Source of the DNA: Brochothrix thermosphacta DSM 20171 = FSL F6-1036
GTDB lineage: Bacteria; Bacillota; Bacilli; Lactobacillales; Listeriaceae
Length of the DNA stretch: 64,000 nt
Direction of reading: 5' to 3'
Assembly (NCBI RefSeq): GCF_036884295.1
Contig: NZ_CP145608.1
Span: 1,054,001 to 1,118,000 of the forward strand
Shown here: one piece after another, positions 405 through 58,718 of the stretch
How positions within the stretch are numbered: the first letter of the stretch is position 1
How the letters are laid out: every line of letters starts with the position of its first letter
The notes under the pieces: generated by a model
Told to the model about the DNA's origin: nothing
The model's database searches: none
Seen by the model: the letters and a program-made list of their open reading frames with translations, nothing else
Program-made: the position numbers and the translations under genes

Positions 405-1526
405 ATGAATATTATCATTGCGATGGATTCAATGAAAAGTGCGTTAACAAGTGAAGCAGCTAATCGTATTATTGCAGATATTGTGACAACAAGAGGTCAT
501 CATGCACTATCATTTACAATGGCGGATGGTGGCGAGGGTACAGCTGAGGCCTTCATGTCAGGTCAATCAGACGGTGAATGGTGTCATGTCGTTACGGTAT
601 CACCCGCTTTTAAAAAAATCGAAGCAAAGTATGGCTGGGTCCCTACTGAAAAAACGGCTTATATTGATGTGAGTGCTGCGTCAGGTATTCAGTATGCATC
701 AGCTGATACACATCCATTGAATCGTACAAGTGCAGGAACCGGTCATTTAATGCGCGATGCATTGGATAAAGGGGCACAAAAAATTGTGCTTGGTTTAGGT
801 GGTAGTGCAACAATTGATGGGGGGATTGGCTTAGTGACTGTTCTAGGCGGTCAATTTTTTAATCGACGCGGTGAACGTTTACAGGGGTGTGGTGCTGATC
901 TCGGTGAAGTGGCTTATATTGATTTATCTCTCTTAGATAAACGATTAGCCAACACAACCATCATTGGTGCCAGTGATGTTACGAACCCTTTGATTGGTGA
1001 GAACGGTGCAGTGCGAGTATTTGGCGCCCAAAAAGGCTTATTACCTGATGAAGAAATTGCCTATGATGAAGCAATGCAGCATTATTTAGAAGTAGCAACT
1101 GGCGCGCTTACAAGCGAAGCGGGTGATGGGGCAGCTGGTGGGATTGGTTTTGCGCTCCGTTTCTTTCTAAAAGGTCAACTGCAATCTGGCGCTACGATGT
1201 TAGTAGAAGCTAATCAATTGCAGGAAGCATTGGAAACAGCAGATTTACTGATTACAGGTGAAGGTCGAATGGATAGCCAGAGTTTAATGGGAAAATTACC
1301 GATTACACTCGCACGTCAAGCTAAAGCTGCAAAAGTACCAGTTATTGCGTTTGTTGGCGGATTTGAAGGTGATGTTGCAGCAGTTGCATCTGAAGGAATT
1401 AGAGCTGTGGTACCCATTGTGCAAGGGCCAGTGACTATCCCTGAAGCGATTTCTGCGGCAGCAACTAATTTGGCAGCTGCAGTTGAACGTACTTTTATCC
1501 TATTAGAATGGGATAAAAAAAGCTGA
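405..1526 (+). CDS. glxK: glycerate kinase (GlxK/GarK family)
   Basis: A 373-residue protein of normal family length, phosphorylating D-glycerate to a phosphoglycerate in the cytoplasm. The N-terminus MNIIIAMDSMKSALTS, the ADGGEGTAEA stretch near residue 42, the glycine-rich LGLGGSATIDGGIG near residue 130 and the late TGEGRMDSQS segment near residue 285 are typical of this family. The ATG at 405 follows a GGGGTGAG ribosome binding site. It stands alone, separated from the next gene by about 770 bases that include a terminator. It may share physiology with the sugar-acid locus downstream, since both feed lower glycolysis, but co-regulation is not shown. Confidence 0.93.
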   Translation: MNIIIAMDSMKSALTSEAANRIIADIVTTRGHHALSFTMADGGEGTAEAFMSGQSDGEWCHVVTVSPAFKKIEAKYGWVPTEKTAYIDVSAASGIQYASADTHPLNRTSAGTGHLMRDALDKGAQKIVLGLGGSATIDGGIGLVTVLGGQFFNRRGERLQGCGADLGEVAYIDLSLLDKRLANTTIIGASDVTNPLIGENGAVRVFGAQKGLLPDEEIAYDEAMQHYLEVATGALTSEAGDGAAGGIGFALRFFLKGQLQSGATMLVEANQLQEALETADLLITGEGRMDSQSLMGKLPITLARQAKAAKVPVIAFVGGFEGDVAAVASEGIRAVVPIVQGPVTIPEAISAAATNLAAAVERTFILLEWDKKS

Positions 1527-2300
1527 CGTACAAAAAAGTTATCATCAAATGAGTTATATTGTCGGTTATAGCTTCAAATTTAATTGATAAATAAGCTGGT
1601 TTTAATTAAGCAAACAGTCGATTCTTCAATATTGTAACTTAAATAGCTAAAATTGAAGAATAATAATGGGGTCAAACGTGTTAAATTAAAACAGTGCTAG
1701 TTAGATGTTTATCTCAAATTACACTCTCCCCAACCCTATAGGTGTAATTTAGTATCCCCAATACAGTAGATATTTAACGAATTTTTTTCCCAACTCCCTA
1801 TTATAATTAATAGCACACAAAGCAACTGTGTAGAATAAAGTCATCACTTTATTCTGTGCAGTTGTTTTTTTGTTTACAAAGAATAGCGGAACCACTAATT
1901 TTCAACAAAGAAGTAGTCGATAAATAGATCTAAAAAGTAGTTCTGAAATGGACTGCTTTTTTATTTGAGTTGCAAATAGATTCCGCTAATAAGTGCATTT
2001 TATTTCAGAATAGGTGCAACATACGCAAAAAAATTTGAACAAGCAATGTATTTTTTGTATTAAAACAAGTGTGTGGATGAAAAAATAGTTACTTTTACAT
2101 AAATTGTTGTCCATTAGTCACCATTTGTTCTTAATATTTGGAAGTATAATAAAAACGACTTATTAATTAATGCAATGTAATCGTTCCAAAAACTGCGCAT
2201 TGCACTACTAAAAGTGCAATTAATTTGTATTGTATTGATGCAATTCCTGGTCTATATTGAATGTAGAGTGATATCACTACTACAAAAACGAGGTGACACA
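1527..2300. other. 774-base non-coding region before the PRD regulator
   Basis: No convincing gene is seen on either strand. The region is AT-rich. It contains a terminator-like hairpin with a T-run at 1822-1871 and a perfect 7-base inverted repeat (ATTGCAC at 2199-2205, GTGCAAT at 2214-2220). Further TGCAAT copies lie at 2171 and near 2238. Spacing and position suit an operator or RNA site for the downstream PRD-type regulator, but this is inference. A small RNA upstream of the terminator is possible and not demonstrated. Confidence 0.5.
1822..1871 (+). terminator. rho-independent terminator hairpin
   Basis: CAACTGTGTAGAATAAAG pairs with CTTTATTCTGTGCAGTTG, with a few G-U pairs, across a short loop, and is followed by seven T. 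It lies almost 300 bases after the glycerate kinase stop, so it ends either a long 3' UTR or a separate short transcript. Confidence 0.75.
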
Positions 2301-4156
2301 GTGCAGCTTTCAAAGCGCGAAATCAGTATTACGCTTACGCTCATTGATGCAAACGGACCGTTGATGACTGCCTTATTAGCAGAACAGTTCGAAATGAGTG
2401 TGCGCAGCATCAAATATGATTTAGATAATATTCGTGCGTGGTTAGAACAAAAAAACTCTCGCTCGTATCTCGAAGAAATAAAGGTATTTGGTTAGAATGG
2501 CCCGATTCAAAAAAACTTGAAATCAAAAATGAGTTGTTACATGTGGCACGTTATGCACTTTTCCCTGATCAGGAAGTACGCATTTACCGTCTGATTTTAA
2601 GGTTAGCACTAGCAGAAACGTTTTTAACTTCAGATACATTGGCTGAGGACATGTCCGTGTCACGCAATACGATTTTAAGCGACCTTGAAAAAATGGAACT
2701 TCTACTTTATGAATATGACGTTACGCTACAACGACGTAACCACTATGGTTTTTGTTTAGCAGGCGAAGAAAGTCAGATTCGATTGTTGATGGAAATTGTT
2801 ATCCAAAAAGGTATGACTGATTATGATGTTTATAACATGATGCAAACGATTGTTAATCAAGAAAAAACACAAGCAACTAATTATGGAATGCCACATGAAA
2901 TGGCAACGATTTTTAACGTCACATTAACAGAGATGGCACAGTTGGTTGACCAAGAAATGCTCGATCAATTTAATTACAGTGAAATTTTAGCCATCATTTT
3001 ACGCGTTGCTATAGCGACAGGTCGTTTAAAAAATACGCATACAATGAAAAGTTATAAAATTCTAGATAATCAGCAACAGCTTGAACAAAAACGAGAACTG
3101 CCATTCTTATTGATGCAAGCTGTGTTTAACTACTATCACTTTCCTAATTTAGAAGATGAATATATTTATATCTTTAGTGACATATTGATTAATTATCAAG
3201 ATGCCAATATTGCAGAGTTAACTACCGCATTAATTGCAGAGGTAAGTGAAAAAGAACAAGTGCCATTTAATGCAGATTAGCAGCTTTTTAATAATCTCTT
3301 TGCTCATTTATCATTAAAACTACATAAAAAACATGTTTTTGTTAATGAATACAATCCCTTTGTGGATGATATAAAGTCGAAAGATTCACACTTATTCAGA
3401 CATATTCAGTTCGCTTCAGAAAAACTGATTGCCAGTTCGGCAGTGATTGTGAACGATTCGTTTGTATCTTATATAGCATTACATTTTTTAGTAGCCTATG
3501 AAAAAGCACAACCCAATCGTGATGTTGTTTCAATTGTCTATATCTGTTCAACAGGTTTGGGTGTGACAAGTTTAATCCAGCAAAAGATTATGGAAGAAGT
3601 AGCAAATGTTGAATTAGTTAGTTTTGCATCTGTCCTTAAAGCACAGGAAGTTATTAAGGAAAAAAATCCAGATTTAGTGGTTAGTATTTTTCCATTAGAA
3701 GGCATTCAACGTCCTTTTATCAAGGTACAGCCATTACCGACCGCTCAAGATATCACGATGATTAATGAGCTTGTACAAGGTGTGTTGCAAAACCGTTCCG
3801 GTGAACATAAATTAACGCGTTTAGTTGCGCGTCAACAAGTCCCCAATAAACAGGGCGTAGAAGATGAAAGTCGTGATCTTTTACTGAGTGCGTTTGTGGT
3901 TTATGAGGAATTGAAACGCCTGTTTGAAGGGCAAATTCAAAGTGGTTATGAAGAAGCTTTCTTGTTGCACGTCATGATGATGGTACATCGTATACATTTT
4001 CAATCACAGTATCAAAATGAGGACAATGTTGTCCCCGAAACATTAGTAACAAATCAAACAGATGTCTGCGCCATTGAAAAAATTATGGCTCATAATAAAC
4101 TTGCAATTAATCGTGCTGAAATAACAGCACTATTACAATATGTATGCATTGAATGA
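2301..4156 (+). pseudogene. disrupted PRD/IIB-type transcription regulator of the SFCGS locus
   Basis: Three pieces read as one BglG/MtlR-like activator of about 617 residues. The first is 2301-2495, GTG start after an AACGAGGTGA ribosome binding site, with helix-turn-helix (MTALLAEQFEMSVRSIKYDL). It shifts frame at the A7 run at 2449-2455, where one extra A would join it to the second piece. That piece is visible in frame from about 2455 and has a second helix-turn-helix (SDTLAEDMSVSRNTILSDL) and a PRD region. An in-frame TAG at 3278-3280 interrupts it, and the same frame then reopens through 3281-4156. The last part holds PRD sequence, a GatB/IIB-like segment (VSIVYICSTGLGVTS near 3530-3570) and a C-terminal helical region. 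Two independent lesions argue for a true pseudogene. Recoding or sequence errors are alternatives. The small PRD gene begins 15 bases after its stop. Confidence 0.8.
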
Positions 4157-4171
4157 AGGAGGTAAAATGTG

Positions 4172-4504
4172 ATGATTTTACCAATAGACGCACAAATGAT
4201 AATTGATGAAAGTGAAGACCGTGAGCGAACAGCAGAAGTAGTCGCTCATACATTAGCTTTAATGTCAGTCCAAGCAATAGTACCGACAGAAATACAGGTG
4301 GTTGTACTAACGAACCATCTTAATGAAATGGTTAAACGCGCGCGTTTATCAGAAAAAATGATGACGATTGATCCGAGCATGTTCAGTGACGTTTCAAGTG
4401 AATCATTAGCACTCGCAACTGAGGTTGTACAAATGATTGGTAATCTACCTGAAGATGAATTGTATTTATTATCCATTCATTTCGAAACAGCAAAATATAA
4501 CTAA
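4172..4504 (+). CDS. stand-alone PRD-domain protein (EF_0829/AHA_3910 type)
   Basis: A 110-residue protein consisting essentially of one PTS-regulation domain, with no DNA-binding part. PRD domains are phosphorylated on histidines by PTS proteins. Here the candidate is the His in the C-terminal LLSIHFETAKYN, with another in VVLTNHLNEM. ATG 4172 is preferred over GTG 4169 because it is 9 bases from AAGGAGGT. It opens the locus that continues with SFCGS and DUF4312. I recall this small PRD family as a named member of the same conserved cluster in Enterococcus faecalis and Aeromonas. It may modulate the neighbouring regulator or sense the transporter's phosphorylation state (inference). Confidence 0.8.
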   Translation: MILPIDAQMIIDESEDRERTAEVVAHTLALMSVQAIVPTEIQVVVLTNHLNEMVKRARLSEKMMTIDPSMFSDVSSESLALATEVVQMIGNLPEDELYLLSIHFETAKYN

Positions 4505-4529
4505 AAAACAATTAGAGGAGGAAATAATA

Positions 4530-4880
4530 ATGATAACAGTCGTAATAGCAGATCGTTTAGGAAAAGGACAAAATGTAGCAAAAGGTGTGGAAGCAGCAGG
4601 CGGACGTGCCGTTGTAGTACCAGGAATGGGCGCTGACATGCGTTTAGGTGATGTGATGCAAACAGAGAAAGCTGATATTGGCATTTCCTTTTGTGGAAGT
4701 GGCGGCGCGGGCGCAATTACAGCTGCAACAAAATACGGTTATGCGGAACGTCATGGTATGCGCTCTGTAGAGGAAGGTGTTACAGCTATTAATGATGGTA
4801 AAACAGTGCTTGGTTTTGGTTTTATGGATCAAGAAGAATTAGGCCGTCGTCTTGTCGAAGCTTATATGAATAAAAAATAA
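4530..4880 (+). CDS. glycine-rich SFCGS family protein (DUF2620-like)
   Basis: A 116-residue soluble protein starting MITVVIADRLGKGQ, with the signature ISFCGSGGAGAIT around its single cysteine, Cys55. ATG 4530 follows AGGAGGAAATAATA, while the longer open frame from 4437 overlaps the PRD gene and is not expected to be used. The family is known only from conserved gene clusters with DUF4310-4312 and sugar-acid enzymes, and is related to YhfU-type proteins. Size, alpha/beta pattern and a Cys followed by a glycine/serine loop recall PTS IIB domains, but the Cys is in mid-protein rather than after the first strand, so that parallel is only a hypothesis. Confidence 0.88.
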   Translation: MITVVIADRLGKGQNVAKGVEAAGGRAVVVPGMGADMRLGDVMQTEKADIGISFCGSGGAGAITAATKYGYAERHGMRSVEEGVTAINDGKTVLGFGFMDQEELGRRLVEAYMNKK

Positions 4881-4903
4881 AAGTGGTGAAAGAGGGATAA
4901 CAG

Positions 4904-5269
4904 ATGGCAAATGTGAAAGAAAAAACAACGGAAATTGTAACAGTTAAAGGCTCTGGCTCGCAAAAAAAACAGGCATTTGCCAGCGCTTTGAATACGATTC
5001 ATAATCAAATTTTAAAATCAGCCAATGATGTCATTGTCAGAATCGAGCTCATTGATATTGAAATTATAACGGCAGAAGCTGTGAATAGTACAGAGCGCTT
5101 TCTGTTCTTCTTTATGCCACGAAAACGCGTTGATTATCATGTGGAGTTGAAAGTAACGATTGAATTAACAAAAATTATTGTTGATAAAGTGCCATTTGTT
5201 AATAAGCAAAAGAAGACATATGAACGTTTAAGTTTACCAAAACGCAAACGTAAAAAACTTGAAGTGTAA
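4904..5269 (+). CDS. DUF4312 family protein
   Basis: A 121-residue soluble protein with no membrane segment. It is rich in Ile/Val beta-strand stretches, with an FLFFFMPRKR segment near residues 66-75 and a very basic end (SLPKRKRKKLEV). ATG 4904 follows an AAGAGGGA ribosome binding site, 23 bases after the SFCGS gene. The family is found only with SFCGS, DUF4311 and DUF4310 and has no assigned biochemical role to my knowledge. A soluble subunit of the predicted transporter is the simplest reading: the basic tail could contact membrane or partner loops (inference). Confidence 0.85.
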   Translation: MANVKEKTTEIVTVKGSGSQKKQAFASALNTIHNQILKSANDVIVRIELIDIEIITAEAVNSTERFLFFFMPRKRVDYHVELKVTIELTKIIVDKVPFVNKQKKTYERLSLPKRKRKKLEV

Positions 5270-5302
5270 ATCATACAAAAAGAAGGATAGGTGAGTACGA
5301 AA

Positions 5303-6085
5303 ATGGAAATCCTGATTGTTTTAATGAAATCTTTACTCATTGGGGGATTGCTTGGATTTGCGGCAGCAGCAGGTGCAGCACGAATGTTTCACGCGCCAGC
5401 AAGTCAAGGTCTAGGTGCCTTTCGAACATTGGGTGAAATGAATGCCTGTGAGGGAGATGCCGCTTCGCATTTCTCATTCGGTTTAGGTTTCTTCTTCAAT
5501 GCTTGGGCATCAAGTGTTGGAGCAGGTGCCTTCACACAAGATGTTACGCATCGAGTGATACCTAACTGGGCAACCGCTGTTTTACTAACGAAAAATAAAA
5601 ATGTAGCAGAAACAATGCATAATCCTAAAAAAATGGGTATAGTCGGTGGTTTAATTGGAATGGTGCTAGTCGCGTTCTTAAATACAACCGCTTCAGCAAT
5701 CCCAGAATCGTTACAAGTCGCTGCTGTTGCAGTATTGGTACCGGCAGCAACGATTTTAATCAATACAGTGATGCCTGTTCTATTTTGGTTAGCTGCCATT
5801 GATGCCGGTCGTCGTTCTGGTTTTTGGGGAACGATCTTGGGCGGGTTATCTCAACTCGTAATGGGTAACGCTGTACCAGGTGTTGTTTTGGGTATTTTGA
5901 TTGGTAAAGGTGTGGATGATATTGGTTGGAACCGTGTGACTAAATCAATTATGGTAGCCATCATATTATTGTTCTTATTTAGTGGTTTCTTCCGAGGTTT
6001 TGATATGCAAATGATTGAAAGTTTTAAATTAACGATTCCAAACTGGTTAAACGATGTGCATAACGTCTTTAATTTCGGTAAATAA
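5303..6085 (+). CDS. DUF4311 family membrane protein, putative transporter subunit
   Basis: About 260 residues with roughly six to seven hydrophobic segments. The conserved-looking region GEMNACEGDAASHFSFGLGF lies near residues 43-62, followed by FFFNAWASSVGAGAFTQDV. ATG 5303 is placed 7 bases after AGGTGAG, and an upstream GTG at 5291 would add four residues. Together with the next gene it would form the membrane part of an uncharacterised uptake system. The acidic/His motif in an otherwise apolar stretch is the best candidate for substrate or ion contact (inference). No similarity to PTS EIIC or MFS proteins is obvious. Confidence 0.85.
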   Translation: MEILIVLMKSLLIGGLLGFAAAAGAARMFHAPASQGLGAFRTLGEMNACEGDAASHFSFGLGFFFNAWASSVGAGAFTQDVTHRVIPNWATAVLLTKNKNVAETMHNPKKMGIVGGLIGMVLVAFLNTTASAIPESLQVAAVAVLVPAATILINTVMPVLFWLAAIDAGRRSGFWGTILGGLSQLVMGNAVPGVVLGILIGKGVDDIGWNRVTKSIMVAIILLFLFSGFFRGFDMQMIESFKLTIPNWLNDVHNVFNFGK

Positions 6086-6103
6086 TAAAAGAGGTGAAAA
6101 AGG

Positions 6104-6754
6104 ATGACAGAAGAAGGATTGAAACGTAATTTTTGGTACGCGGATTGGTCGTTTCCCATTTTCGTAGGAATAATGGCAGCTGCCGTTTTTGCAGGAACGC
6201 ACATGTATTATGTGTATGGTGTGGGTGCTTTTAACGAGGTATCGATTGTTGCAATGCTAAAAGCGGGTATGGACGGTGGTTCTTATGGTGCAGCTGCCGC
6301 TTTTGGTGCAAGTTTCTTATTTGCGCGTATTCTAGAAGGGTCACTCGTAGGGATTCTTGATTTAGGTGGGTCCATTTTAACGGGTGTAGGTATCGGTATA
6401 CCAGCGATTTTTTTGAGTATGAATATCGTCGCACCGATTACTAACTTTGGTTTGGCATTATTGACGGGTGCTATTTGCGGCTTGTTAATTGGTGGTATCA
6501 TCATTCTTATTCGTAAAGTCACTATTAATGGATCGAGTTCTACTTTTGGTGCAGATGTCATGATGGGTGCTGGGAATGCGGCTGGTCGCTTTTTAGGACC
6601 ACTATTAATTTTATCTGCATGTACAGCGTCGATTCCAATTGGTATGGGTTCAGTACTAGGGGCATTGATTTTTTATATTTGGCGTAAACCGATTGCAGGT
6701 GGTGCGATATTAGGTGCCATGATATTTGGCGCAATTTTCCCAATTGCGTTATAA
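6104..6754 (+). CDS. DUF4310 family membrane protein, putative transporter subunit
   Basis: A 216-residue glycine/alanine-rich integral membrane protein with about six hydrophobic segments, beginning MTEEGLKRNFWYADWSFPIF and ending APIAL-like (FGAIFPIAL). ATG 6104 follows AAAGAGGTGAAAAAGG, 18 bases after the DUF4311 stop. Tight spacing and constant co-occurrence with DUF4311 suggest the two form one membrane complex. No transport substrate is known. Gly-rich helices such as GGSYGAAAAFGASF could pack as a channel-like core. Confidence is high for the family and low for the function. Confidence 0.85.
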   Translation: MTEEGLKRNFWYADWSFPIFVGIMAAAVFAGTHMYYVYGVGAFNEVSIVAMLKAGMDGGSYGAAAAFGASFLFARILEGSLVGILDLGGSILTGVGIGIPAIFLSMNIVAPITNFGLALLTGAICGLLIGGIIILIRKVTINGSSSTFGADVMMGAGNAAGRFLGPLLILSACTASIPIGMGSVLGALIFYIWRKPIAGGAILGAMIFGAIFPIAL

Positions 6755-6769
6755 GAAAGGGTGATAAAA

Positions 6770-7876
6770 ATGTATGATTTATTGATACGACAAGGCCGTT
6801 TAGCGACGGATGACATCGTCGATATCGCTATTAAAGATAAAAAAATTATAGCAGTTGCTCCCTTAATAGAAGCAGACGCTCAGGAAGTCATTGATTTGGC
6901 AGGCGAAAGTTATGTGTCAGCGGGCTGGATCGATGATCATGTTCATTGTTATGAAAAGATGACACTTTATTATGATTATCCTGATCAAATTGGAATTCCT
7001 AAAGGTGTAACAACAGTGATTGATGCTGGTACAACAGGTGCGGAGAATGTGGGAGATTTTTATGAATTGGCACAACAGGCAAACACCAACGTTTATGCGC
7101 TCTTGAATATTTCTAAATGGGGAATCGTGGAACAAGATGAACTAGCTGATTTGGCTAAAATTCAATCTGCATTAATCACTCAATCGTTGGCAGATTACCC
7201 TGATTTTATAGTAGGGTTGAAAGCGCGTATGAGCAAAACTGTTGTGGGTGAAAATGGTATTGTCCCCTTACAAATGGTAAAAAAAATACAGTCTGAATGT
7301 AATCACTTACCATTGATGGTACATATCGGTTCTGCTCCTCCTGAATTAGAGGACGTCCTAACCGAAATGTCAGCGGGTGATGTCATGACACATTGTTACA
7401 ATGGTAAACCGAATGGTATTTTTAATACAGCAGGTCAGTTGAAACCTTTTGTTCGTGAAGCCTATGATAAAGGTATTCTCTTTGATATTGGTCATGGGAC
7501 GGACAGTTTTAATTTTAACGTTGCCGAACAAGCGAAAGCAGCAGGAATTATCTGTCAAACGATTAGTACCGATATTTATCATCGCAATCGTGAAACGGGT
7601 CCTGTCTATGATTTGGCGACAACAATTGAAAAAATGTTAGTGATAGGCTATTCATTGGCTGAAGTGTTACCGATGATTACTGAAAACCCTGCAGCAGCAT
7701 TCCATTTGGATAATAAAGGGCAACTAGCAGCAGGATATGATGCTGATATTACTATTTTCAATTTAAAAGAGCGTCGTAAAACATTGGTGGACTCGAATGG
7801 GAACACGCGTGAAACAACGACGGTTATTGTACCATCTCATACTATTATTGGAGGGAGCGTGTATGACTGTGACTGA
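6770..7876 (+). CDS. amidohydrolase/deacetylase-family metallohydrolase
   Basis: A 368-residue cytoplasmic enzyme of the dihydroorotase/adenine-deaminase-like amidohydrolase superfamily. Visible metal-site elements are the His-x-His of WIDDHVHCYEK near residue 60, a Lys in VGLKARMS that could be the carboxylated bridging lysine, His in LMVHIG, His in VMTHCYNG and Asp in TISTDIY. ATG 6770 follows GAAAGGGTG, and its last 14 bases overlap the next gene, implying coupled translation. It probably hydrolyses an amide, acetamide or lactam before the PLP enzyme acts, for example deacylating an N-acyl amino sugar acid. The exact substrate is unknown. Confidence 0.85.
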   Translation: MYDLLIRQGRLATDDIVDIAIKDKKIIAVAPLIEADAQEVIDLAGESYVSAGWIDDHVHCYEKMTLYYDYPDQIGIPKGVTTVIDAGTTGAENVGDFYELAQQANTNVYALLNISKWGIVEQDELADLAKIQSALITQSLADYPDFIVGLKARMSKTVVGENGIVPLQMVKKIQSECNHLPLMVHIGSAPPELEDVLTEMSAGDVMTHCYNGKPNGIFNTAGQLKPFVREAYDKGILFDIGHGTDSFNFNVAEQAKAAGIICQTISTDIYHRNRETGPVYDLATTIEKMLVIGYSLAEVLPMITENPAAAFHLDNKGQLAAGYDADITIFNLKERRKTLVDSNGNTRETTTVIVPSHTIIGGSVYDCD

Positions 7877-8972
7877 AGGAATAAGTTATCAAAAATACGG
7901 TTTAAAAGAAGTGATTAATGCCTCTGGTAAAATGACGATTTTAGGTGTATCAAAAGTGTCTGACAACGTATTAGCCGCACAACAATTTGGCGGGCAACAT
8001 TTTTTTGAAATGAGTGATCTCGTCATCCAAACAGGTCGACATATTGCGCAGTTATTAGAGGTTGAAGATGCAATCGTTGTTTCAAGTGCTTCTGCTGGGA
8101 TTGCACAAAGTGTGGCGGGAATAATTGGCCAAGGTGATTTATTCCATGCGTATCATCCTTATACAAAGAAAGTGAGTCGACGTGAGATCATTGTACCGAA
8201 GGGTCACAATGTTGATTATGGGACACCCGTTGAGGTCATGGTTGGTCTGGGTGGCGGTAAAATAGTCGAGGCGGGGTATGCTAATATGTGTCATGCAGAG
8301 CATATTGAGATGATGGTGACACCAGAAACCGCTGCTATTTTATACATCAAGAGTCATCACACTGTTCAAAAAAGTATGTTGAGTGTAGCAGAAGCGGCAG
8401 CTATTGCCAAAAAATATCAGTTGCCCTTAATTGTTGATGCAGCAGCCGAGGAAGATTTAGAAAAGTATACAGCTGAAGGTGCAAACCTTGTCATTTATAG
8501 TGGAGGCAAGGCCATTGAAGGACCGACATCTGGCTTGGTTATTGGTGATGCAACACTTATTGAGTGGGTGCGATTGCAAACTAAAGGTATTGGACGTGCG
8601 ATGAAAGTAGGCAAAGAAAACATTTTAGGGTTTACGACGGCAATCGAGGATTATATCCAGAACGATAGTGAAAGTGGACATGCGATGAAAGCGCGGTTAC
8701 AGCCATTTTTAGCGGATTTAAATACAATTGCGGGCATTGAGGCAACAGAAGAACAAGATGGCGCTGGACGTGATATATACCGTGCCAAAGTAGCAGTGAA
8801 TGGTCCAGTAACGGCACTTGCAGTTGTTAAACAGCTTAAAGAAGGTCAATTGGCAATCTATACACGTGAATACCGTGCAAACAATGGTGTGATTGAATTT
8901 GATATTCGTGCAGTTAATCAGTATGAGATGACTCAAATTGTTGAACGTTTACGCAGTATTTTAAATAACTAG
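7863..8972 (+). CDS. DgaE-family PLP-dependent ammonia-lyase
   Basis: A 369-residue, SelA-related fold-type I pyridoxal-phosphate enzyme. The PLP lysine is expected in IYSGGKAIEGP (about Lys216), and the preceding PLIVDAAAEEDLE holds the Asp that contacts the cofactor ring. Characterised relatives (DgaE of Salmonella) convert D-glucosaminate-6-phosphate to 2-keto-3-deoxygluconate-6-phosphate plus ammonia. ATG 7863 follows GGAGGGAG and overlaps the amidohydrolase gene. With the aldolase next door, this supports degradation of an amino sugar acid phosphate to pyruvate and glyceraldehyde-3-phosphate. Whether the substrate is glucosaminate or a relative cannot be told from sequence. Confidence 0.88.
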   Translation: MTVTEGISYQKYGLKEVINASGKMTILGVSKVSDNVLAAQQFGGQHFFEMSDLVIQTGRHIAQLLEVEDAIVVSSASAGIAQSVAGIIGQGDLFHAYHPYTKKVSRREIIVPKGHNVDYGTPVEVMVGLGGGKIVEAGYANMCHAEHIEMMVTPETAAILYIKSHHTVQKSMLSVAEAAAIAKKYQLPLIVDAAAEEDLEKYTAEGANLVIYSGGKAIEGPTSGLVIGDATLIEWVRLQTKGIGRAMKVGKENILGFTTAIEDYIQNDSESGHAMKARLQPFLADLNTIAGIEATEEQDGAGRDIYRAKVAVNGPVTALAVVKQLKEGQLAIYTREYRANNGVIEFDIRAVNQYEMTQIVERLRSILNN

Positions 8973-8987
8973 AGAAGAGGAAATGAT

Positions 8988-9728
8988 ATGAAAAAAACAC
9001 CCCAATATATGTCAGATCGTTTATGTTTAAATGTTTTAGCAGGTTCAGTGGAAAACGCAAAAGATTGTTATGAGGCGGCAAACGGTCAAATCGTTCTTGG
9101 TGTGCTCTCTAAAAATTATGAAACGGATGAAGCAGCAATCGCTGATATGAAAAAATATGCTCATGCAACCAACAACGCTCTTTCAGTCGGTTTAGGTGCA
9201 GGTGACCCAAATCAGAGTCAAATGGTGAGCCGTATTTCAGCTATTTTACAACCCCAACATGTGAATCAAGTATTCACTGGTATTGGCGCAAGCCGTGCGT
9301 TACTAGGGCAAAATGAAACAATTGTTAATGGTTTGGTGTCACCGACAGGTAAAGTAGGGTACGTTAATATTGCAACAGGCCCTTTAAGTAGCCAAGCGCC
9401 TGCAACAGAAGTGCCAATTGAAACAGCAATTTCATTGTTAAAAGATATGGGTGGTAGTTCTATTAAGTATTTTCCAATGAAAGGTCTTGCGCATAAAGAA
9501 GAATACATTGCTGTAGCAAAAGCGTGTGCAGACTATGATTTTTATCTTGAGCCGACAGGTGGCATTGATTTAGAAAACTTTGAAGAAATAGTGCAAATTG
9601 CGATTGATGCAGGTGTGAAAAAAGTGATTCCACACGTTTATTCTTCTATTATTGATTCAGAAACTGGACTTACGCGTCCAGAAGACGTTAAAACCTTGAT
9701 TCAAATGATGGAAAAAACGCTGAGTTAA
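8988..9728 (+). CDS. KDGP aldolase family protein (DgaF-like)
   Basis: A 246-residue class I aldolase-type TIM barrel that should split 2-keto-3-deoxy-6-phosphogluconate into pyruvate and glyceraldehyde-3-phosphate. The Schiff-base lysine is probably the one in GGSSIKYFPMKG near residue 158-164. The C-terminal half has FYLEPTGGIDLENF, a phosphate-binding-like glycine turn. ATG 8988 follows AGAAGAGGAAATGAT, 15 bases after dgaE. It is the last gene before a terminator, so it closes the operon. It belongs to the longer KDGP aldolase group associated with these clusters (E. faecalis EF_0839 type, from memory) rather than the short Eda type. Confidence 0.88.
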   Translation: MKKTPQYMSDRLCLNVLAGSVENAKDCYEAANGQIVLGVLSKNYETDEAAIADMKKYAHATNNALSVGLGAGDPNQSQMVSRISAILQPQHVNQVFTGIGASRALLGQNETIVNGLVSPTGKVGYVNIATGPLSSQAPATEVPIETAISLLKDMGGSSIKYFPMKGLAHKEEYIAVAKACADYDFYLEPTGGIDLENFEEIVQIAIDAGVKKVIPHVYSSIIDSETGLTRPEDVKTLIQMMEKTLS

Positions 9729-9754: not shown

Positions 9755-9795
9755 AAACAGTATTTTGACGTTTTCGTTGAAATACTGTTTTTTAG
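9755..9795 (+). terminator. terminator of the SFCGS/dga-like operon
   Basis: AAACAGTATTT pairs with AAATACTGTTT across a 13-base loop and is followed by a T-run. It lies 26 bases after the aldolase stop. Confidence 0.85.
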
Positions 9796-10156: not shown

Positions 10157-11497
10157 ATGATTAAAATTACAGACGCTACACTTGAGGTCAGCCAGTTAAT
10201 TGAAGCTGCTAAGGATGCCCAACGCTCTTATGAAAACTTTACACAAGCACAAGTTGATGAAATTATTACAGCTGTATCAGTACAGTTGGGAACAGTTGCT
10301 GAAGAGTTAGCAACACTTGCTCATAATGAAACAGGTTTCGGTAATATTAAAGATAAAATAACAAAAAATATTTACGCAAGTGAACATGTTTATAATAGTA
10401 TCAAGGACATTGCAACAGTTGGTGAAATTGCACGTGATGAAGAAAATAAAATTATGGATATCGCTATTCCAATGGGTGTAGTTGCAGGATTAATTCCATC
10501 AACAAACCCGACATCAACAGTTATATTCAAAGCGCTTATCGCTCTGAAATCACGTAATGCGATTGTATTTTCACCCCATCCAAAAGCATTACAATCAATT
10601 TTAAAGGCTGCGCATTATGTTGAAAAAGCAGCAATCAGTGCAGGTGCACCTGCAGGGCTCATTCAAGTAATCGCACAACCGAGTTTGGATGCGACCAACC
10701 AACTAATGACACACGACGATATCGCTTTGATTTTAGCGACAGGTGGTGGAGCAATGGTTAAAGCTGCTTATCGCTCAGGAACCCCAGCAATTGGTGTAGG
10801 CCAAGGTAATGCGCCTGCATATATTGAAAAATCTGCAGATATTAATAAAGCGGTAACAGATATTATCAACAGTAAGACATTTGACTATGGAACAATTTGT
10901 GCTTCTGAACAATCAATCGTTGTGGATGTGGAGATTAAAGAAGCAGTGAAACAAAAACTGGAAGCAGAAGGCGCTTATTTCTTATCTCGTACAGAAGCTG
11001 ATCAATTAAGCCGTTTCATTATGCGAGAAGGCGGTGGTATGAATCCTGAGCTTGTTGGTAAGCCGGTTGAGACACTTGCGGCAATTAGTGGTTTAGACAT
11101 TCCAGCAGGGATTAAAGTATTGATTTCAGAGGAAACTGAAATTGGCGAACATAATGCGTATTCATGTGAAAAATTGATGCCTGTTTTAGGGATGTACACC
11201 GTTCATTCATGGGAAGAAGGCGTAAGAACTTGTAATATGTTATTGCATAATGAAGGTGCAGGACATACGGCCTTACTACATACAAGTAGTGAAGAACTTG
11301 CATTGGAATATGGCTTGAAAATTGCTGCATCGCGTGTGTTAATTAATACGTACGGTTCACTTGGTGCAATTGGTTTCACAACTAACTTAATGCCATCGCT
11401 CACTTTAGGTTGTGGGGCAGTCGGCGGTAGTAGCACAACTGACAATGTTAGTGTGATGAACCTTTTAAACATCAAACGTGTCGCGTTTGGTAAATAA
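10157..11497 (+). CDS. CoA-acylating aldehyde dehydrogenase, copy 1
   Basis: A 446-residue enzyme resembling the N-terminal domain of AdhE, EutE and SucD, without the iron alcohol-dehydrogenase half. The catalytic cysteine is in DYGTICASEQ, and the cofactor-binding region shows LIPSTNPTSTVIFKAL and FSPHPKA. It should interconvert an aldehyde and an acyl-CoA with NAD(H). Acetaldehyde is the likely default, with other aldehydes such as sulfoacetaldehyde or succinate semialdehyde possible. ATG follows AAAAGAGGCG. It is monocistronic, with its own promoter, cre boxes upstream and a strong terminator. It is closely similar along its full length to the enzyme at 13503-14855. Confidence 0.9.
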   Translation: MIKITDATLEVSQLIEAAKDAQRSYENFTQAQVDEIITAVSVQLGTVAEELATLAHNETGFGNIKDKITKNIYASEHVYNSIKDIATVGEIARDEENKIMDIAIPMGVVAGLIPSTNPTSTVIFKALIALKSRNAIVFSPHPKALQSILKAAHYVEKAAISAGAPAGLIQVIAQPSLDATNQLMTHDDIALILATGGGAMVKAAYRSGTPAIGVGQGNAPAYIEKSADINKAVTDIINSKTFDYGTICASEQSIVVDVEIKEAVKQKLEAEGAYFLSRTEADQLSRFIMREGGGMNPELVGKPVETLAAISGLDIPAGIKVLISEETEIGEHNAYSCEKLMPVLGMYTVHSWEEGVRTCNMLLHNEGAGHTALLHTSSEELALEYGLKIAASRVLINTYGSLGAIGFTTNLMPSLTLGCGAVGGSSTTDNVSVMNLLNIKRVAFGK

Positions 11498-13502: not shown

Positions 13503-14855
13503 ATGGTTGAAACAATGTTTAAAGACGTAGAAGCAGTTGAAGTCGTAGATGAATTAATATCAACTGCGCAGAAGGCTCAACAAATATATGCAGGGTTCTC
13601 ACAAAAACAGGTGGATCATTTAGTAGCAGTTGTATCGCAAAAACTAGGTGAACAAGCAGAAAAATTAGCAATTCAGGCTCATGAAGAGACGGGTTTTGGT
13701 AATGTAAAAGATAAGATAATAAAAAATACTTTTGCCAGCGAACACGTATACAATAGTATTAAAGATATACCGACTGTTGGGGAAATTAAGCGTGATGATA
13801 TCAACCAAATTATTGAAATTGGCATTCCAATGGGCATTGTTGTGGGGTTAATTCCGTCGACAAATCCAACGTCTACTGTTATTTTCAAGGCACTCCTAGC
13901 TTTAAAATCAAGAAACGCGATTATTTTTTCACCACATCCCAAAGCGTTGAAAGCAATTATGATGACGGTCGAAATGATTGAAAAAGAGATTGTAGCAGAG
14001 GGGGCACCAGCTGGCTTAATTCAAGTTATTAAAAAACCTACTTTGGAAGCGACTCAGTACCTTATGCAACATGATAAAGCGGCTTTAATATTAGCTACTG
14101 GTGGAGGAGCAATGGTCAAAGCGGCCTATCAATCAGGCACACCCGCAATTGGTGTTGGACAAGGAAATGCGCCTACATATATCGAAAAAACTGCAAATGT
14201 TAAAGAAGCTGTGGCAGCTATTATTGAAAGTAAAACGTTTGATTATGGTACTATCTGCGCCTCTGAACAGTCACTAGTAGTAGATAAAGAAATTTGTAAG
14301 GATGTCATAAAGGCACTCGAAAACAAAAAAGCTTACTTTTTATCTGCTGAAGAAGCACAGAAAGTAGGTGCCATCATTATGCTAGAGAATGGTGGGATGA
14401 ATCCTGCAATTGTTGGAAAACCAGCTGTATTTGTCGCAAAATTAAGTGGTATCGAAGTGCCAGAAGATACGAGTGTATTAATTGCTAAGCAAACAAATAT
14501 CGGTAAAGAGTATCCGTTCTCACGTGAAAAATTAACGCCCGTATTGGGTTTTTATACGGTAGAGACATGGGAAGAAGGCATGACAACTTGTAATGCATTA
14601 TTAGCAAATGAAGGCGCTGGACATACTGCGATATTACATACTCAATCAGATGAACGTGTATTAGATTATGGCTTACAGATTACGGCATCACGAGTACTGA
14701 TCAATACGTTAGGCGCGTTGGGTGCCATTGGTTTTACCACGAAATTGGCTCCTTCATTAACATTAGGATGCGGTGCAATCGGTGGAAGTAGTACAACGGA
14801 TAATGTCAGTGTATTGAATCTTTTAAATATCAAACGCATTGCTTATGGCGTATAA
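13503..14855 (+). CDS. CoA-acylating aldehyde dehydrogenase, copy 2
   Basis: A 450-residue paralogue of the enzyme at 10157-11497, with the same catalytic DYGTICASEQ, LIPSTNPTSTVIFKAL and FSPHPKA motifs and the same C-terminal GGSSTTDNVSVLNLLNIKR. It should carry out the same class of NAD-dependent acyl-CoA/aldehyde conversion, perhaps with a different substrate or condition of use. ATG 13503 follows GAGGGAGAG. A strong cre box lies just upstream and a divergent AraC-type regulator 250 bases away. No alcohol dehydrogenase or microcompartment gene is next to it, so the partner enzyme must be elsewhere. Confidence 0.9.
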   Translation: MVETMFKDVEAVEVVDELISTAQKAQQIYAGFSQKQVDHLVAVVSQKLGEQAEKLAIQAHEETGFGNVKDKIIKNTFASEHVYNSIKDIPTVGEIKRDDINQIIEIGIPMGIVVGLIPSTNPTSTVIFKALLALKSRNAIIFSPHPKALKAIMMTVEMIEKEIVAEGAPAGLIQVIKKPTLEATQYLMQHDKAALILATGGGAMVKAAYQSGTPAIGVGQGNAPTYIEKTANVKEAVAAIIESKTFDYGTICASEQSLVVDKEICKDVIKALENKKAYFLSAEEAQKVGAIIMLENGGMNPAIVGKPAVFVAKLSGIEVPEDTSVLIAKQTNIGKEYPFSREKLTPVLGFYTVETWEEGMTTCNALLANEGAGHTAILHTQSDERVLDYGLQITASRVLINTLGALGAIGFTTKLAPSLTLGCGAIGGSSTTDNVSVLNLLNIKRIAYGV

Positions 14856-35426: not shown

Positions 35427-35447
35427 TATAAAGGAGTGTTGAAGAGA

Positions 35448-36425
35448 ATGCTGATTAAAACGGATGATACTAAAAAATATGATTTAATTGCAGTGGGACG
35501 AGCGTGTATTGATTTGAACGCTGTAGAATTTAACCGTCCAATGGAAGAAACAATGACTTTTGCAAAATATGTGGGTGGCTCTCCAGCTAACGTCGCTATC
35601 GGTTTAGCCAAACTAGGTTTAAAACCAGGCTTTATTGGAAAATTAGCAGATGACCAACACGGTCGTTTTATTAAAACGTACATGACAGCTGCAGGTGTTG
35701 ATATGGAAGAAACTGTTCTAGATACAGCAGGTCATAAAACGGGATTGGCTTTTACAGAAATTAAAAGTCCATCAGAATGCAGTATCTTAATGTATCGAGA
35801 TGAAGTAGCTGATTTATATCTTGAAGCAAGTGAAGTGGACGAAGCGTATATTAAACAAGCACGCTTATTATTGGTCTCAGGGACAGCGTTATCAATGAGC
35901 CCATCACGTGAAGCGATATTGACAGCAGTAGCCTATGCCAAAAAGAATGATGTACCCGTTGTGTTTGAATTAGATTACCGTCCTTATACATGGCAATCAT
36001 TAGAAGATACGGCTGTTTATTATAGCTTAGTTGCAAATCAAGCAGATATCATCATCGGAACACGTGATGAATTTGATCGTCTAGAGAATAAAGAAGGGGG
36101 TAAGAACGAAGAAACGATTGCTGCATTATTCCAACATAGCGCACAATTAATTGTCATTAAGCATGGTGTAGAAGGATCGTATGCTTACACCAAAGCAGGT
36201 GATGTCTATAATGGTAAAGCTTATAAAACAAAAGTTCTTAAAACATTTGGTGCGGGTGATTCCTATGCAGCTGCATTTATATATGCCGTTCTGGCTGGAA
36301 AATCAATCGAAACAGCATTGAAATATGGTAGCGCATCGGCTTCAATCGTTGTGAGTAAACACAGTTCCTCTGATGCTATGCCTGATGTTGCGGCAATCGA
36401 AGCATTGATTCAAAGTCACGAATAA
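35448..36425 (+). CDS. iolC: 5-dehydro-2-deoxygluconokinase
   Basis: A 325-residue PfkB-family kinase phosphorylating 2-deoxy-5-keto-gluconate at C6. It shows the N-terminal PfkB region (ICVGRACIDLN-like, VGRACIDLN near residue 14, YVGGSPANVAIGLAKLG near 45) and the C-terminal catalytic signature TFGAGDSYAAAFIYA near residue 268 with its aspartate base. ATG 35448 follows AAGGAGTGTTGAAGAG. Its product is both the aldolase substrate and, in Bacillus, the inducer of IolR. Confidence 0.95.
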   Translation: MLIKTDDTKKYDLIAVGRACIDLNAVEFNRPMEETMTFAKYVGGSPANVAIGLAKLGLKPGFIGKLADDQHGRFIKTYMTAAGVDMEETVLDTAGHKTGLAFTEIKSPSECSILMYRDEVADLYLEASEVDEAYIKQARLLLVSGTALSMSPSREAILTAVAYAKKNDVPVVFELDYRPYTWQSLEDTAVYYSLVANQADIIIGTRDEFDRLENKEGGKNEETIAALFQHSAQLIVIKHGVEGSYAYTKAGDVYNGKAYKTKVLKTFGAGDSYAAAFIYAVLAGKSIETALKYGSASASIVVSKHSSSDAMPDVAAIEALIQSHE

Positions 36426-58474: not shown

Positions 58475-58718
58475 TTGACAAAAACCACTATTTACAGTAT
58501 CTTTATAGAAGTATATAAAGCAATGAAGAGCAGTAGTAGCAAACTGAACCGGTTGAAGTGAGTATGGGCTAGTGGGAACCATATAATACGGCATTTGTGA
58601 AGGCAGCTTGGAGCTTATTTTCTTGAGGTGGATGATTGTAAAATCATCAAGTAGGGTGGAACCGCGATATTTATCGTCCCTATGTTAGTCATTGTGATTA
58701 GCATAGGGACGTTTTTTT
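58475..58718 (+). ncRNA. T-box leader of glyQS (glycine tRNA riboswitch)
   Basis: The leader starts with promoter TTGACA (58475-58480), 17 bases and TATCTT (58498-58503). It contains an AATGAAGAGCAGTAGTAGC-type stem I segment from 58521, and the T-box core AGGGTGGAACCGCG at 58653-58666, followed by a terminator (CGTCCCTATG with CATAGGGACG, 58675-58718) ending in seven T. Uncharged tRNA-Gly should stabilise the antiterminator and turn on glyQS. A GGC in the stem I region near 58567 is a candidate specifier, not certain. Confidence 0.95.

What the first reader, a model, noticed from the sequence alone, without database searches (positions are those of the whole stretch)
4172..9728. Uncharacterised SFCGS/DUF4312/DUF4311/DUF4310 system fused by context to amino-sugar-acid catabolism
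Seen: eight tightly spaced genes on one strand (PRD, SFCGS, DUF4312, DUF4311, DUF4310, amidohydrolase, DgaE-like, DgaF-like), one terminator at the end. Known: DgaE/DgaF turn D-glucosaminate-6-phosphate into pyruvate and glyceraldehyde-3-phosphate, in Salmonella after uptake by a mannose-type PTS. The four DUF families have no assigned role that I know. Inference: two soluble plus two membrane proteins replace the PTS as a new type of substrate uptake, perhaps with phosphorylation, since the lyase needs a phosphorylated substrate and no sugar-acid kinase is in the operon. The PRD proteins suggest a phosphorelay link. The amidohydrolase suggests the imported compound is N-acylated or cyclic.
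Basis: partly seen in the sequence, partly recalled or inferred. Interest (0 to 1): 0.85.

Follow-up and report, generated by a model that had tools for sequence, protein, structure and literature searches.

The report
Candidate new phosphorylating sugar-acid uptake system
Five small uncharacterised genes that travel together seem to take the place of a known sugar importer (or of an importer plus a kinase) in a bacterial pathway for breaking down amino-sugar acids, and may be a new way of importing and phosphorylating food.

Summary
In detail: eight packed genes (4169-9728) and a terminator-like hairpin. SFCGS-DUF4312-DUF4311-DUF4310 are contiguous and in order in 95 of 97 loci examined. The enzymes are relatives of the D-glucosaminate-6-phosphate pathway. 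New evidence: (1) DgaE operons with a GntP permease carry a PfkB kinase in 9 of 9; two with a classical PTS do not (one of these also lacks DgaF); DUF loci lack it next door in 88 of 95, and the window genome has no close match. (2) Two Bartonella plasmids and one Bacillota genome encode HPr and enzyme I beside the module. (3) SFCGS has a ribose-5-phosphate isomerase B fold, keeping the Cys/Gly loop but not the catalytic His or the C-terminal arginine segment; DUF4312 looks dodecin-like. (4) The stand-alone PRD keeps both histidines; one genome has PRD and SFCGS in one open frame. No relation to PTS EII proteins was detected; the membrane fold is unresolved. Best reading: a PTS-linked uptake-and-phosphorylation system made of unusual parts. 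Phosphotransfer is inferred, not shown. The upstream PRD regulator is broken in this strain.

The parts
405..1526 (+). glycerate kinase (not in the operon; context only)
   Evidence: TIGR00045 336.8 bits
2303..4156 (+). large HTH-HTH-PRD-type regulator, broken: frameshift near 2465 and TAG at 3278-3280
   Evidence: pieces in two frames match the intact E. faecalis regulator residues 2-58 and 56-617; Mga/HTH/PRD matches
4169..4504 (+). stand-alone PRD protein (EF_0829 family), two conserved His (H50, H104)
   Evidence: TIGR03582 111.9 bits; H50 and H104 in 88 of 88 distinct sequences
4530..4880 (+). SFCGS protein, RpiB/LacAB-like fold, conserved Cys55
   Evidence: TIGR03577 215.6 bits; model pLDDT 92.2; fold match to RpiB; Cys55 in 79 of 79 distinct sequences
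4904..5269 (+). DUF4312 protein, dodecin-like beta-alpha-beta-beta domain
   Evidence: TIGR03578 107.6 bits; VIA-align first 18 rows Z 7.4-6.7, 15 of them titled dodecin
5291..6085 (+). DUF4311 membrane protein (ATG alternative start at 5303)
   Evidence: TIGR03580 484.5 bits; 5 hydrophobic segments by a simple hydropathy scan
6104..6754 (+). DUF4310 membrane protein
   Evidence: TIGR03579 370.2 bits; 6 hydrophobic segments
6770..7876 (+). amidohydrolase/deacetylase EF_0837 type
   Evidence: TIGR03583 555.4 bits; best solved relative 2ics
7863..8972 (+). DgaE-family PLP ammonia-lyase
   Evidence: TIGR01437 553.5 bits; [quoted passage not shown]
8988..9728 (+). DgaF-like KDGP aldolase
   Evidence: TIGR03581 403.7 bits, NF047796 385 bits; 3nzr/3lm7
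9755..9790 (+). terminator-like hairpin and T run
   Evidence: 16 pairs, loop of 4

Best explanation
PRD + SFCGS + DUF4312 + DUF4311 + DUF4310 form one PTS-linked uptake unit for a 2-amino (probably N-acylated) sugar acid of the D-glucosaminate type. DUF4311 and DUF4310 carry the substrate across the membrane, and phosphate from PEP, passed by enzyme I and HPr, ends up on the substrate during or right after entry. The amidohydrolase removes the acyl group, DgaE converts D-glucosaminate-6-phosphate to 2-keto-3-deoxygluconate-6-phosphate, and DgaF splits it to pyruvate and glyceraldehyde-3-phosphate. Shown: gene identity, order, conservation, co-location with DgaE/DgaF, alternation with GntP or PTS genes, usual absence of the kinase next door, HPr/EI beside the module in two lineages, the RpiB fold of SFCGS (model). 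Inferred: that the module transports, that it uses PEP phosphate, and that the carriers are the PRD histidines and SFCGS Cys55.
For: Unit: SFCGS-4312-4311-4310 contiguous in 95 of 97 loci; of those 95, DgaE in 93, DgaF in 92, amidohydrolase in 93, a PRD-type regulator in 92. DUF4310 and SFCGS are over cut-off in the same 7 of 398 Bacillota genomes. Alternation: DgaE operons without the module next door use GntP + PfkB kinase (8 relatives; Priestia plasmid), a GAT-type PTS (G044) or a Man-type EIIA/B/C/D PTS (L. paracasei plasmid); neither of the two PTS stretches has a match to that kinase. Kinase adjacent in 7 of 95 DUF loci, 0 of 73 proteobacterial ones; the window genome's only match is 20% identical and lies beside inositol-type genes; none at E<=0.001 in G114, G218, G456. 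PTS link: HPr-EI fusion as last operon gene on two Bartonella plasmids, with no EII annotated and no match to four EIIC/EIID queries in positions 15000-55938 of the HY761 plasmid; HPr and EI beside the operon in G218. Sites: PRD His50/His104 88 of 88 and SFCGS Cys55 79 of 79 distinct sequences; four more divergent PRDs also show both His by eye; open-frame PRD-SFCGS fusion in G332. Phosphorylated substrate: the three arginines docked to the phosphate in Salmonella DgaE are kept in 93 of 93 (paper passages).
Against: No biochemical data. No detectable relation of SFCGS, DUF4312, DUF4311 or DUF4310 to PTS proteins by hhalign (shallow profiles, many single-sequence targets, so weak). The DUF4311/4310 model is poor. 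The three phosphate arginines are equally kept in 10 of 10 comparison enzymes, so they do not discriminate. A kinase is adjacent in 7 of 95 loci; in the 60-relative set the contrast is 3 of 7 against 8 of 8 (one-sided p 0.026, not corrected for kinship). One of the two PTS comparators (G044) has no DgaF match in its 18 kb. PfkB genes 25-30% identical to the kinase exist elsewhere in G002, G006, G332 and G441. HPr/EI beside the module could serve only the PRD regulators, and in G218 another EIIC with an HPr-EI fusion lies about 8-10 kb away. In G042 the module stands alone and the enzymes are elsewhere with their own kinase. EI and HPr in 9 of 9 genomes is weak because both are common, and all 9 also have ordinary PTS_EIIC genes.
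Confidence: 0.55

Rival explanations
1. The module is a non-phosphorylating transporter (channel or ion-coupled) whose PRD protein and regulator only sense the PTS state; phosphate is added by a kinase encoded elsewhere.
For: A kinase is adjacent in 7 of 95 DUF loci; PfkB genes of 25-30% identity occur elsewhere in some module genomes; PRD domains are usually regulatory (established knowledge); HPr/EI beside the module could feed the regulator; GntP-type operons show that the same enzymes work with non-PTS import.
Against: No close match to that kinase in the window genome and none at E<=0.001 in G114, G218, G456; 0 of 73 proteobacterial loci have it next door; two extra soluble partners, one with an invariant Cys, would be unexplained. 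Other kinase families were not searched for.
Confidence: 0.27
2. SFCGS is an RpiB/LacA-like isomerase and the soluble proteins are metabolic enzymes; only DUF4311/4310 transport.
For: RpiB fold, Z up to 13.0; the CGTG loop, a Lys and mostly the Asp of the DH motif retained; the LacA-like L147 also lacks the His and the C-terminal motif.
Against: The catalytic His is lost and the C-terminal arginine segment is missing; no LacB-like gene recognised in the operon; SFCGS stays with the membrane genes where DgaE, DgaF and amidohydrolase are not adjacent (G042/L106); PRD-SFCGS open-frame fusion in G332.
Confidence: 0.13
3. A known PTS family diverged beyond recognition (for example the glucitol type, which also has two membrane proteins).
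For: Similar number and kind of parts to DgaABCD or the glucitol PTS.
Against: hhalign against SrlA, SrlE, SrlB, Man-, Aga-, Gat- and Lac-type proteins gave probabilities of 4.7% or less; SFCGS matches RpiB, and no EIIB was among the 50 rows shown in either fold list.
Confidence: 0.05

Closest known systems
Salmonella D-glucosaminate system DgaABCDEF (PTS plus DgaE, DgaF; paper passages; mannose type by the title of Miller 2013 in a reference list)
   Same: Same DgaE and DgaF families; four transport genes before them; PTS-linked. The same layout with Man-type EIIA/B/C/D is on a L. paracasei plasmid.
   Different: The four transport genes are other families (SFCGS, DUF4312, DUF4311, DUF4310), with an extra PRD protein and usually an amidohydrolase.
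GntP permease + PfkB kinase version of the amidohydrolase-DgaE-DgaF operon (8 relatives, Priestia megaterium)
   Same: Same three enzymes.
   Different: Import by a GntP-family permease and a separate kinase; GntR-type regulator; no DUF module.
RpiB/LacA/LacB sugar-phosphate isomerases
   Same: Fold of SFCGS and its Cys-Gly-Ser/Thr-Gly loop.
   Different: Catalytic His and the C-terminal GRHQ-R segment are missing.
Dodecins
   Same: DUF4312 model superposes on whole dodecin chains, Z 7.4-6.7.
   Different: Longer, with a C-terminal extension; ligand residues not examined; Z below 8.
PRD domains of PTS-controlled regulators (MtlR/LicR/BglG type)
   Same: Both conserved histidines.
   Different: A free single domain encoded as part of a transport unit, without a recognised DNA- or RNA-binding domain.

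Membership tests
PTS enzyme II complex | sequence or fold homology to EIIA, EIIB, EIIC or EIID | tested here: inconclusive
   hhalign probabilities at or below 4.7%, but profiles were shallow; DUF4311/4310 fold not resolved
PTS enzyme II complex | phosphate relay from PEP through EI and HPr to the substrate | not testable with these tools
   only context: HPr/EI encoded beside the module
PTS enzyme II complex | invariant phosphorylatable His/Cys in soluble subunits | tested here: met
   PRD H50 and H104 88 of 88, SFCGS Cys55 79 of 79 distinct sequences; conservation only, not phosphorylation
PTS enzyme II complex | no separate sugar kinase needed | tested here: inconclusive
   kinase next to 7 of 95 loci; only a 20% identical match in the window genome; other kinase families not searched
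RpiB/LacAB isomerase | fold | tested here: met
   Foldseek 16 of 16 matches at E<=0.001 are RpiB or the RpiB-like uronate isomerase 4u8f; VIA-align first 23 entries Z 13.0-8.0; PF02502 finds SFCGS in G114 at E 7.1e-5 and G218 at 5.8e-4, below its cut-off
RpiB/LacAB isomerase | catalytic Cys in CGTG loop | tested here: met
   CGSG aligned
RpiB/LacAB isomerase | catalytic His and C-terminal phosphate arginines (residue roles recalled) | tested here: not met
   His replaced, C-terminal segment absent; LacA-like L147 also lacks them
dodecin | fold | tested here: inconclusive
   first 18 rows Z 7.4-6.7, 15 titled dodecin, the others tt0972 and Rv1498A; below the cautious limit of 8
dodecin | flavin or other ligand binding, dodecamer | not tested
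   no assembly or ligand test made
PRD domain | two conserved histidines | tested here: met
   divergent members (L108 only E 0.034 against the family model)
[quoted passage not shown]
   all kept in the window protein; Arg226 is Asp here
[quoted passage not shown]
   373.3 against 600 bits for NF047797; subfamily TIGR01437 is met with 553.5 against 385.3
DgaF KDGP aldolase | score over the curated equivalog cut-off | tested here: met
   NF047796 385 against 300 bits

The most novel reading that the evidence does not exclude
A previously unrecognised type of phosphotransferase permease: HPr passes phosphate to a free PRD domain acting as EIIA, then to Cys55 of an RpiB-fold protein acting as EIIB, and on to the substrate carried by a DUF4311/DUF4310 membrane pair, with a dodecin-like protein as scaffold or gate. 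None of the parts would descend from known EII proteins, so the sugar PTS principle would have been invented again from a regulator domain and an isomerase fold.
Probability: 0.3. Interest if true: 0.88.

Novelty: new variant of a known kind. Interest (0 to 1): 0.72.

Why it matters
The module is widespread (at least 492 matching stretches in one-genome-per-species data), highly conserved in two phyla, and its DUF family names appear in no paper of the open library searched. If it imports and phosphorylates, it adds a class of transporter to bacterial sugar physiology, gives functions to five unknown families, and shows how a regulatory domain and an isomerase fold may be reused for group transport. 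It is directly testable in a laboratory strain.

Tried and rejected
Rejected: SFCGS as a classical EIIB or as a glucitol-type EIIB (the CGG motif looked similar by eye; hhalign 0.1%; no EIIB among the 50 rows shown in either fold list). DUF4311/DUF4310 as distant Man-, Aga-, Gat-, Lac- or glucitol-type EIIC/EIID or GntP: no support, though the test is insensitive. The weak DUF4310 match in G129 is a short stretch in an unrelated-looking membrane ORF. The RecA and haemoglobin rows for DUF4312 are very probably tandem-fusion artefacts. The idea that DgaE would lose its phosphate arginines in GntP/kinase operons failed: kept in 10 of 10, so that line does not discriminate. A first profile comparison of SFCGS with RpiB is not usable because RpiB rows were cut at the wrong place; a corrected multiple alignment is, and the profile comparison was not repeated. 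Foldseek with the fused model found nothing at E<=0.001; VIA rows for residues 442-537 match unrelated helical proteins and were ignored. A weak DUF4311 match in the E. coli control genome was not identified (one search failed). E. coli complete genomes: no match with Klebsiella DNA in near mode. Counting notes: one search uses distinct sequences over 60 residues only; one search uses 93 of 94 DgaE sequences of the DUF loci (one under 300 residues dropped) and 10 others. Papers: searches; passages only were read in PMC9529869, PMC7701990, PMC11135667, PMC7396535 and PMC11325843; the rest (among them PMC2912369, which names EF0839) were seen as listings only; PMC3754740 (Salmonella dga paper) is not held.
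Full report
WHAT IS THERE. The window is G000:C1:1054001-1118000 of a 2.56 Mb genome. It is very probably a Brochothrix: the same-genus genome G001 has a contig of 46,535 bases, the length of Brochothrix campestris NZ_AODH01000002.1, whose DUF4310 is 93% identical; the exact species is not known to me. All eight genes of the finding are present with high family scores, short gaps and one overlap and a terminator-like hairpin at 9755-9790. Upstream, a large regulator with HTH and PRD parts is broken by a frameshift near 2465 and an in-frame TAG at 3278-3280; the small PRD protein is intact.

CONSERVATION AND CONTEXT. SFCGS-DUF4312-DUF4311-DUF4310 are contiguous and in order in 95; the other two are L019 (contig starts in DUF4311) and L099 (DUF4310, amidohydrolase, DgaE and the start of DgaF not found). 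Of the 95: DgaE 93, DgaF 92, amidohydrolase 93, PRD-type regulator 92, PRD 89 by BLAST. The three without a regulator match are L016, L036 and L105; L016 and L105 are the same B. campestris contig end and L036 ends soon after DgaF. Of the six without a PRD match, two are that same contig end and four (L108-L111) have a more divergent PRD (L108 only E 0.034). The set is redundant: 73 of the 95 are proteobacterial, many of them Enterobacterales and Aeromonas. In broader draws DUF4310 is over cut-off in 7 of 398 Bacillota and 12 of 398 genomes of the phylum of Hafnia; SFCGS is over cut-off in the same 7 Bacillota genomes. In the sampled rows the membrane proteins are 56-82% identical to the window's.

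THE NATURAL COMPARISON. Among 60 relatives, 17 have a DgaE over the family cut-off; all 8 with DUF4310 are among them, 9 lack DUF4310. I read the neighbourhoods of those 9 and of the separate DgaE locus of G042, plus three named plasmids. With a GntP permease (PF02447, 469 bits for L178; the other seven relatives 80-99% identical, one of them split over two ORFs; Priestia by annotation) a PfkB kinase is next to DgaF in 9 of 9. The regulators there are GntR by Pfam in L178, by annotation in Priestia and by resemblance in the rest. With a classical PTS the kinase is absent from the stretch in 2 of 2: a L. paracasei plasmid (Man-type EIIA/B/C/D, DgaE, DgaF) and G044 (GAT-type EIIA, EIIB, EIIC and DgaE; but no DgaF match, so a poorer comparator; a ribokinase-like ORF further on belongs to what looks like a ribose operon). 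With a Lac-type EIIC plus MupG and no DUF genes in the stretch it is present in 2 of 2 (G042, C. difficile plasmid), both with GntR. With the DUF module it is next door in 7 of 95: B. campestris (counted twice) and L020, L046, L096, L102 and L104, which also carry the Lac-type EIIC-MupG block, a block that brings the kinase even away from the module. No proteobacterial DUF locus of 73 has it. The window genome has only a 20% identical match, in the gene at 35436-36425, beside genes that look like an inositol cluster; G114, G218 and G456 have none at E<=0.001, whereas G002, G006, G332 and G441 have PfkB genes of 25-30% identity elsewhere. In the 60-relative set alone the contrast is 3 of 7 versus 8 of 8, one-sided p 0.026, without correction for kinship. 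So in the question of who supplies the phosphate the module behaves more like a PTS than like an ion-coupled permease. Kinases of other families, or a chromosomal KdgK, were not searched for and remain the main loophole.

PTS LINK. On two Bartonella plasmids the operon ends with a regulator and an HPr-enzyme I gene, a 671-aa fusion in HY761. No EII gene is annotated on that plasmid, and tblastn with four EIIC/EIID proteins finds none in positions 15000-55938. In G218 the operon is followed on the same strand by a HAD-type hydrolase, HPr and EI. That genome has two further EI and two further HPr matches; one fused pair with an EIIC lies about 8-10 kb away on the same contig, so a link of the nearer HPr/EI to the module is likely but not certain. 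The two proteobacterial regulators tested carry a PTS_EIIA_2 domain. All 9 module-bearing genomes tested have EI and HPr and also ordinary PTS_EIIC genes, so that line is weak.

THE PARTS. SFCGS: a confident model (pLDDT 92.2) matches ribose-5-phosphate isomerase B: 16 of 16 Foldseek matches at E<=0.001 are RpiB or the RpiB-like uronate isomerase 4u8f, and VIA-align gives Z 13.0-8.0 for the first 23 entries and 7.9 for the next. The Pfam RpiB model finds SFCGS itself in G114 and G218 below its cut-off (E 7.1e-5 and 5.8e-4). In the alignment the Cys-Gly-Ser-Gly loop is kept and a following Lys nearly always, the Asp of the DH motif is mostly kept and its His becomes an invariant Arg; the catalytic His and the C-terminal GRHQ-R segment are missing (their roles are recalled from RpiB work). 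LacA-like L147 also lacks them. Cys55 is present in 79 of 79 distinct sequences. DUF4312: modelled well within the fused chain (10-residue blocks 72-97 for residues 1-100); the first 18 VIA rows have Z 7.4-6.7 and 15 of them are titled dodecin, which is suggestive only. PRD: both histidines in 88 of 88 distinct sequences. In G332 PRD and SFCGS lie in one open frame of 249 codons, a possible fusion, although a ribosome-binding site and ATG inside could also start SFCGS alone. DUF4311 and DUF4310: hydrophobic segments and many invariant charged residues, but no usable fold and no solved relative by profile. No similarity to the PTS proteins tried was found.

THE ENZYMES. [quoted passage not shown] The three arginines that a manual docking places at the phosphate (PMC9529869, passages) are kept in 93 of 93 enzymes of DUF loci and 10 of 10 others. 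Arg226, placed near the carboxylate, is Asp in the window and Lys in 79 of 93. DgaF is over the equivalog cut-off. The amidohydrolase is closest to 2ics, the EF_0837-type structure (that 2ics is EF_0837 is recalled); activity of such enzymes on N-acyl D-amino acids and acetyl-(R)-mandelate is recalled, not from a call, and would fit an N-acyl D-glucosaminate. Klebsiella L098 and 36 other loci also have a lactonase. PMC7701990 (passages) describes EF0839 as an eda-like enzyme perhaps linked to amino-sugar metabolism.

JUDGEMENT. That the five proteins are the substrate-entry unit of this pathway is likely (my estimate 0.8). That they use PEP phosphate is the best explanation of the kinase pattern and of the HPr/EI neighbours (0.55). 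That the phosphate passes through the PRD and Cys55 is the boldest reading (0.3). The names DUF4310, DUF4311 and DUF4312 and the Aeromonas locus tags and TIGR accessions tried occur in no paper of the open library searched; what I read on E. faecalis concerns the DgaE/DgaF genes.

Noticed in passing
window 2214-4156: Large PRD/HTH regulator gene broken by a frameshift and a nonsense codon although the operon behind it is intact.
   Followed up: partly
window 10157-11497 and 13503-14855: Two similar acetylating acetaldehyde dehydrogenase genes, with a gene for an AraC-type response regulator on the other strand between them.
   Followed up: no
window 58514-58684: T-box leader, 94 bits, just over the gathering score of 93; downstream gene not examined.
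   Followed up: no
L096 12626-15361; L182 5212-7903; L189 4760-7292: A Lac-type PTS EIIC followed by MupG (6-phospho-N-acetylmuramidase), with a 90-99 aa protein between them in L096 and L182 (no Pfam match for the L096 one), forms a second exchangeable block before the amidohydrolase-DgaE-DgaF-kinase genes, hinting at a muramic-acid-related substrate.
   Followed up: partly
L134 1354-2064: A glucitol-type EIIBC in G203 seems to have lost most of its EIIB domain.
   Followed up: no
L013/L015: DUF4310 of G311 is split over two reading frames although the neighbouring operon genes look open.
   Followed up: no
L099 10777-11355: In an Aeromonas caviae record DgaF sequence follows DUF4311 directly: DUF4310, amidohydrolase, DgaE and the start of DgaF seem deleted.
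   Followed up: partly
L097 / L115: The Bartonella plasmid with the operon also carries a type VI secretion gene cluster and has part of its replication region in an inverted second copy.
   Followed up: no
L108-L111: A HAD-type hydrolase (Pfam for L108; by resemblance in the others) follows DgaF in these more distant Bacillota members.
   Followed up: no
L177 7488-8331: In G044 a gap of about 840 bases without an ORF of 80 aa or more lies between an enolase-type gene and DgaE, and no DgaF was found in the stretch.
   Followed up: no
L023, L028, L033, L053, L084, L086, L094: In several Enterobacterales the operon lies next to what looks like the rapZ-npr PTS-Ntr gene cluster (HPr-like match on the other strand).
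   Followed up: no
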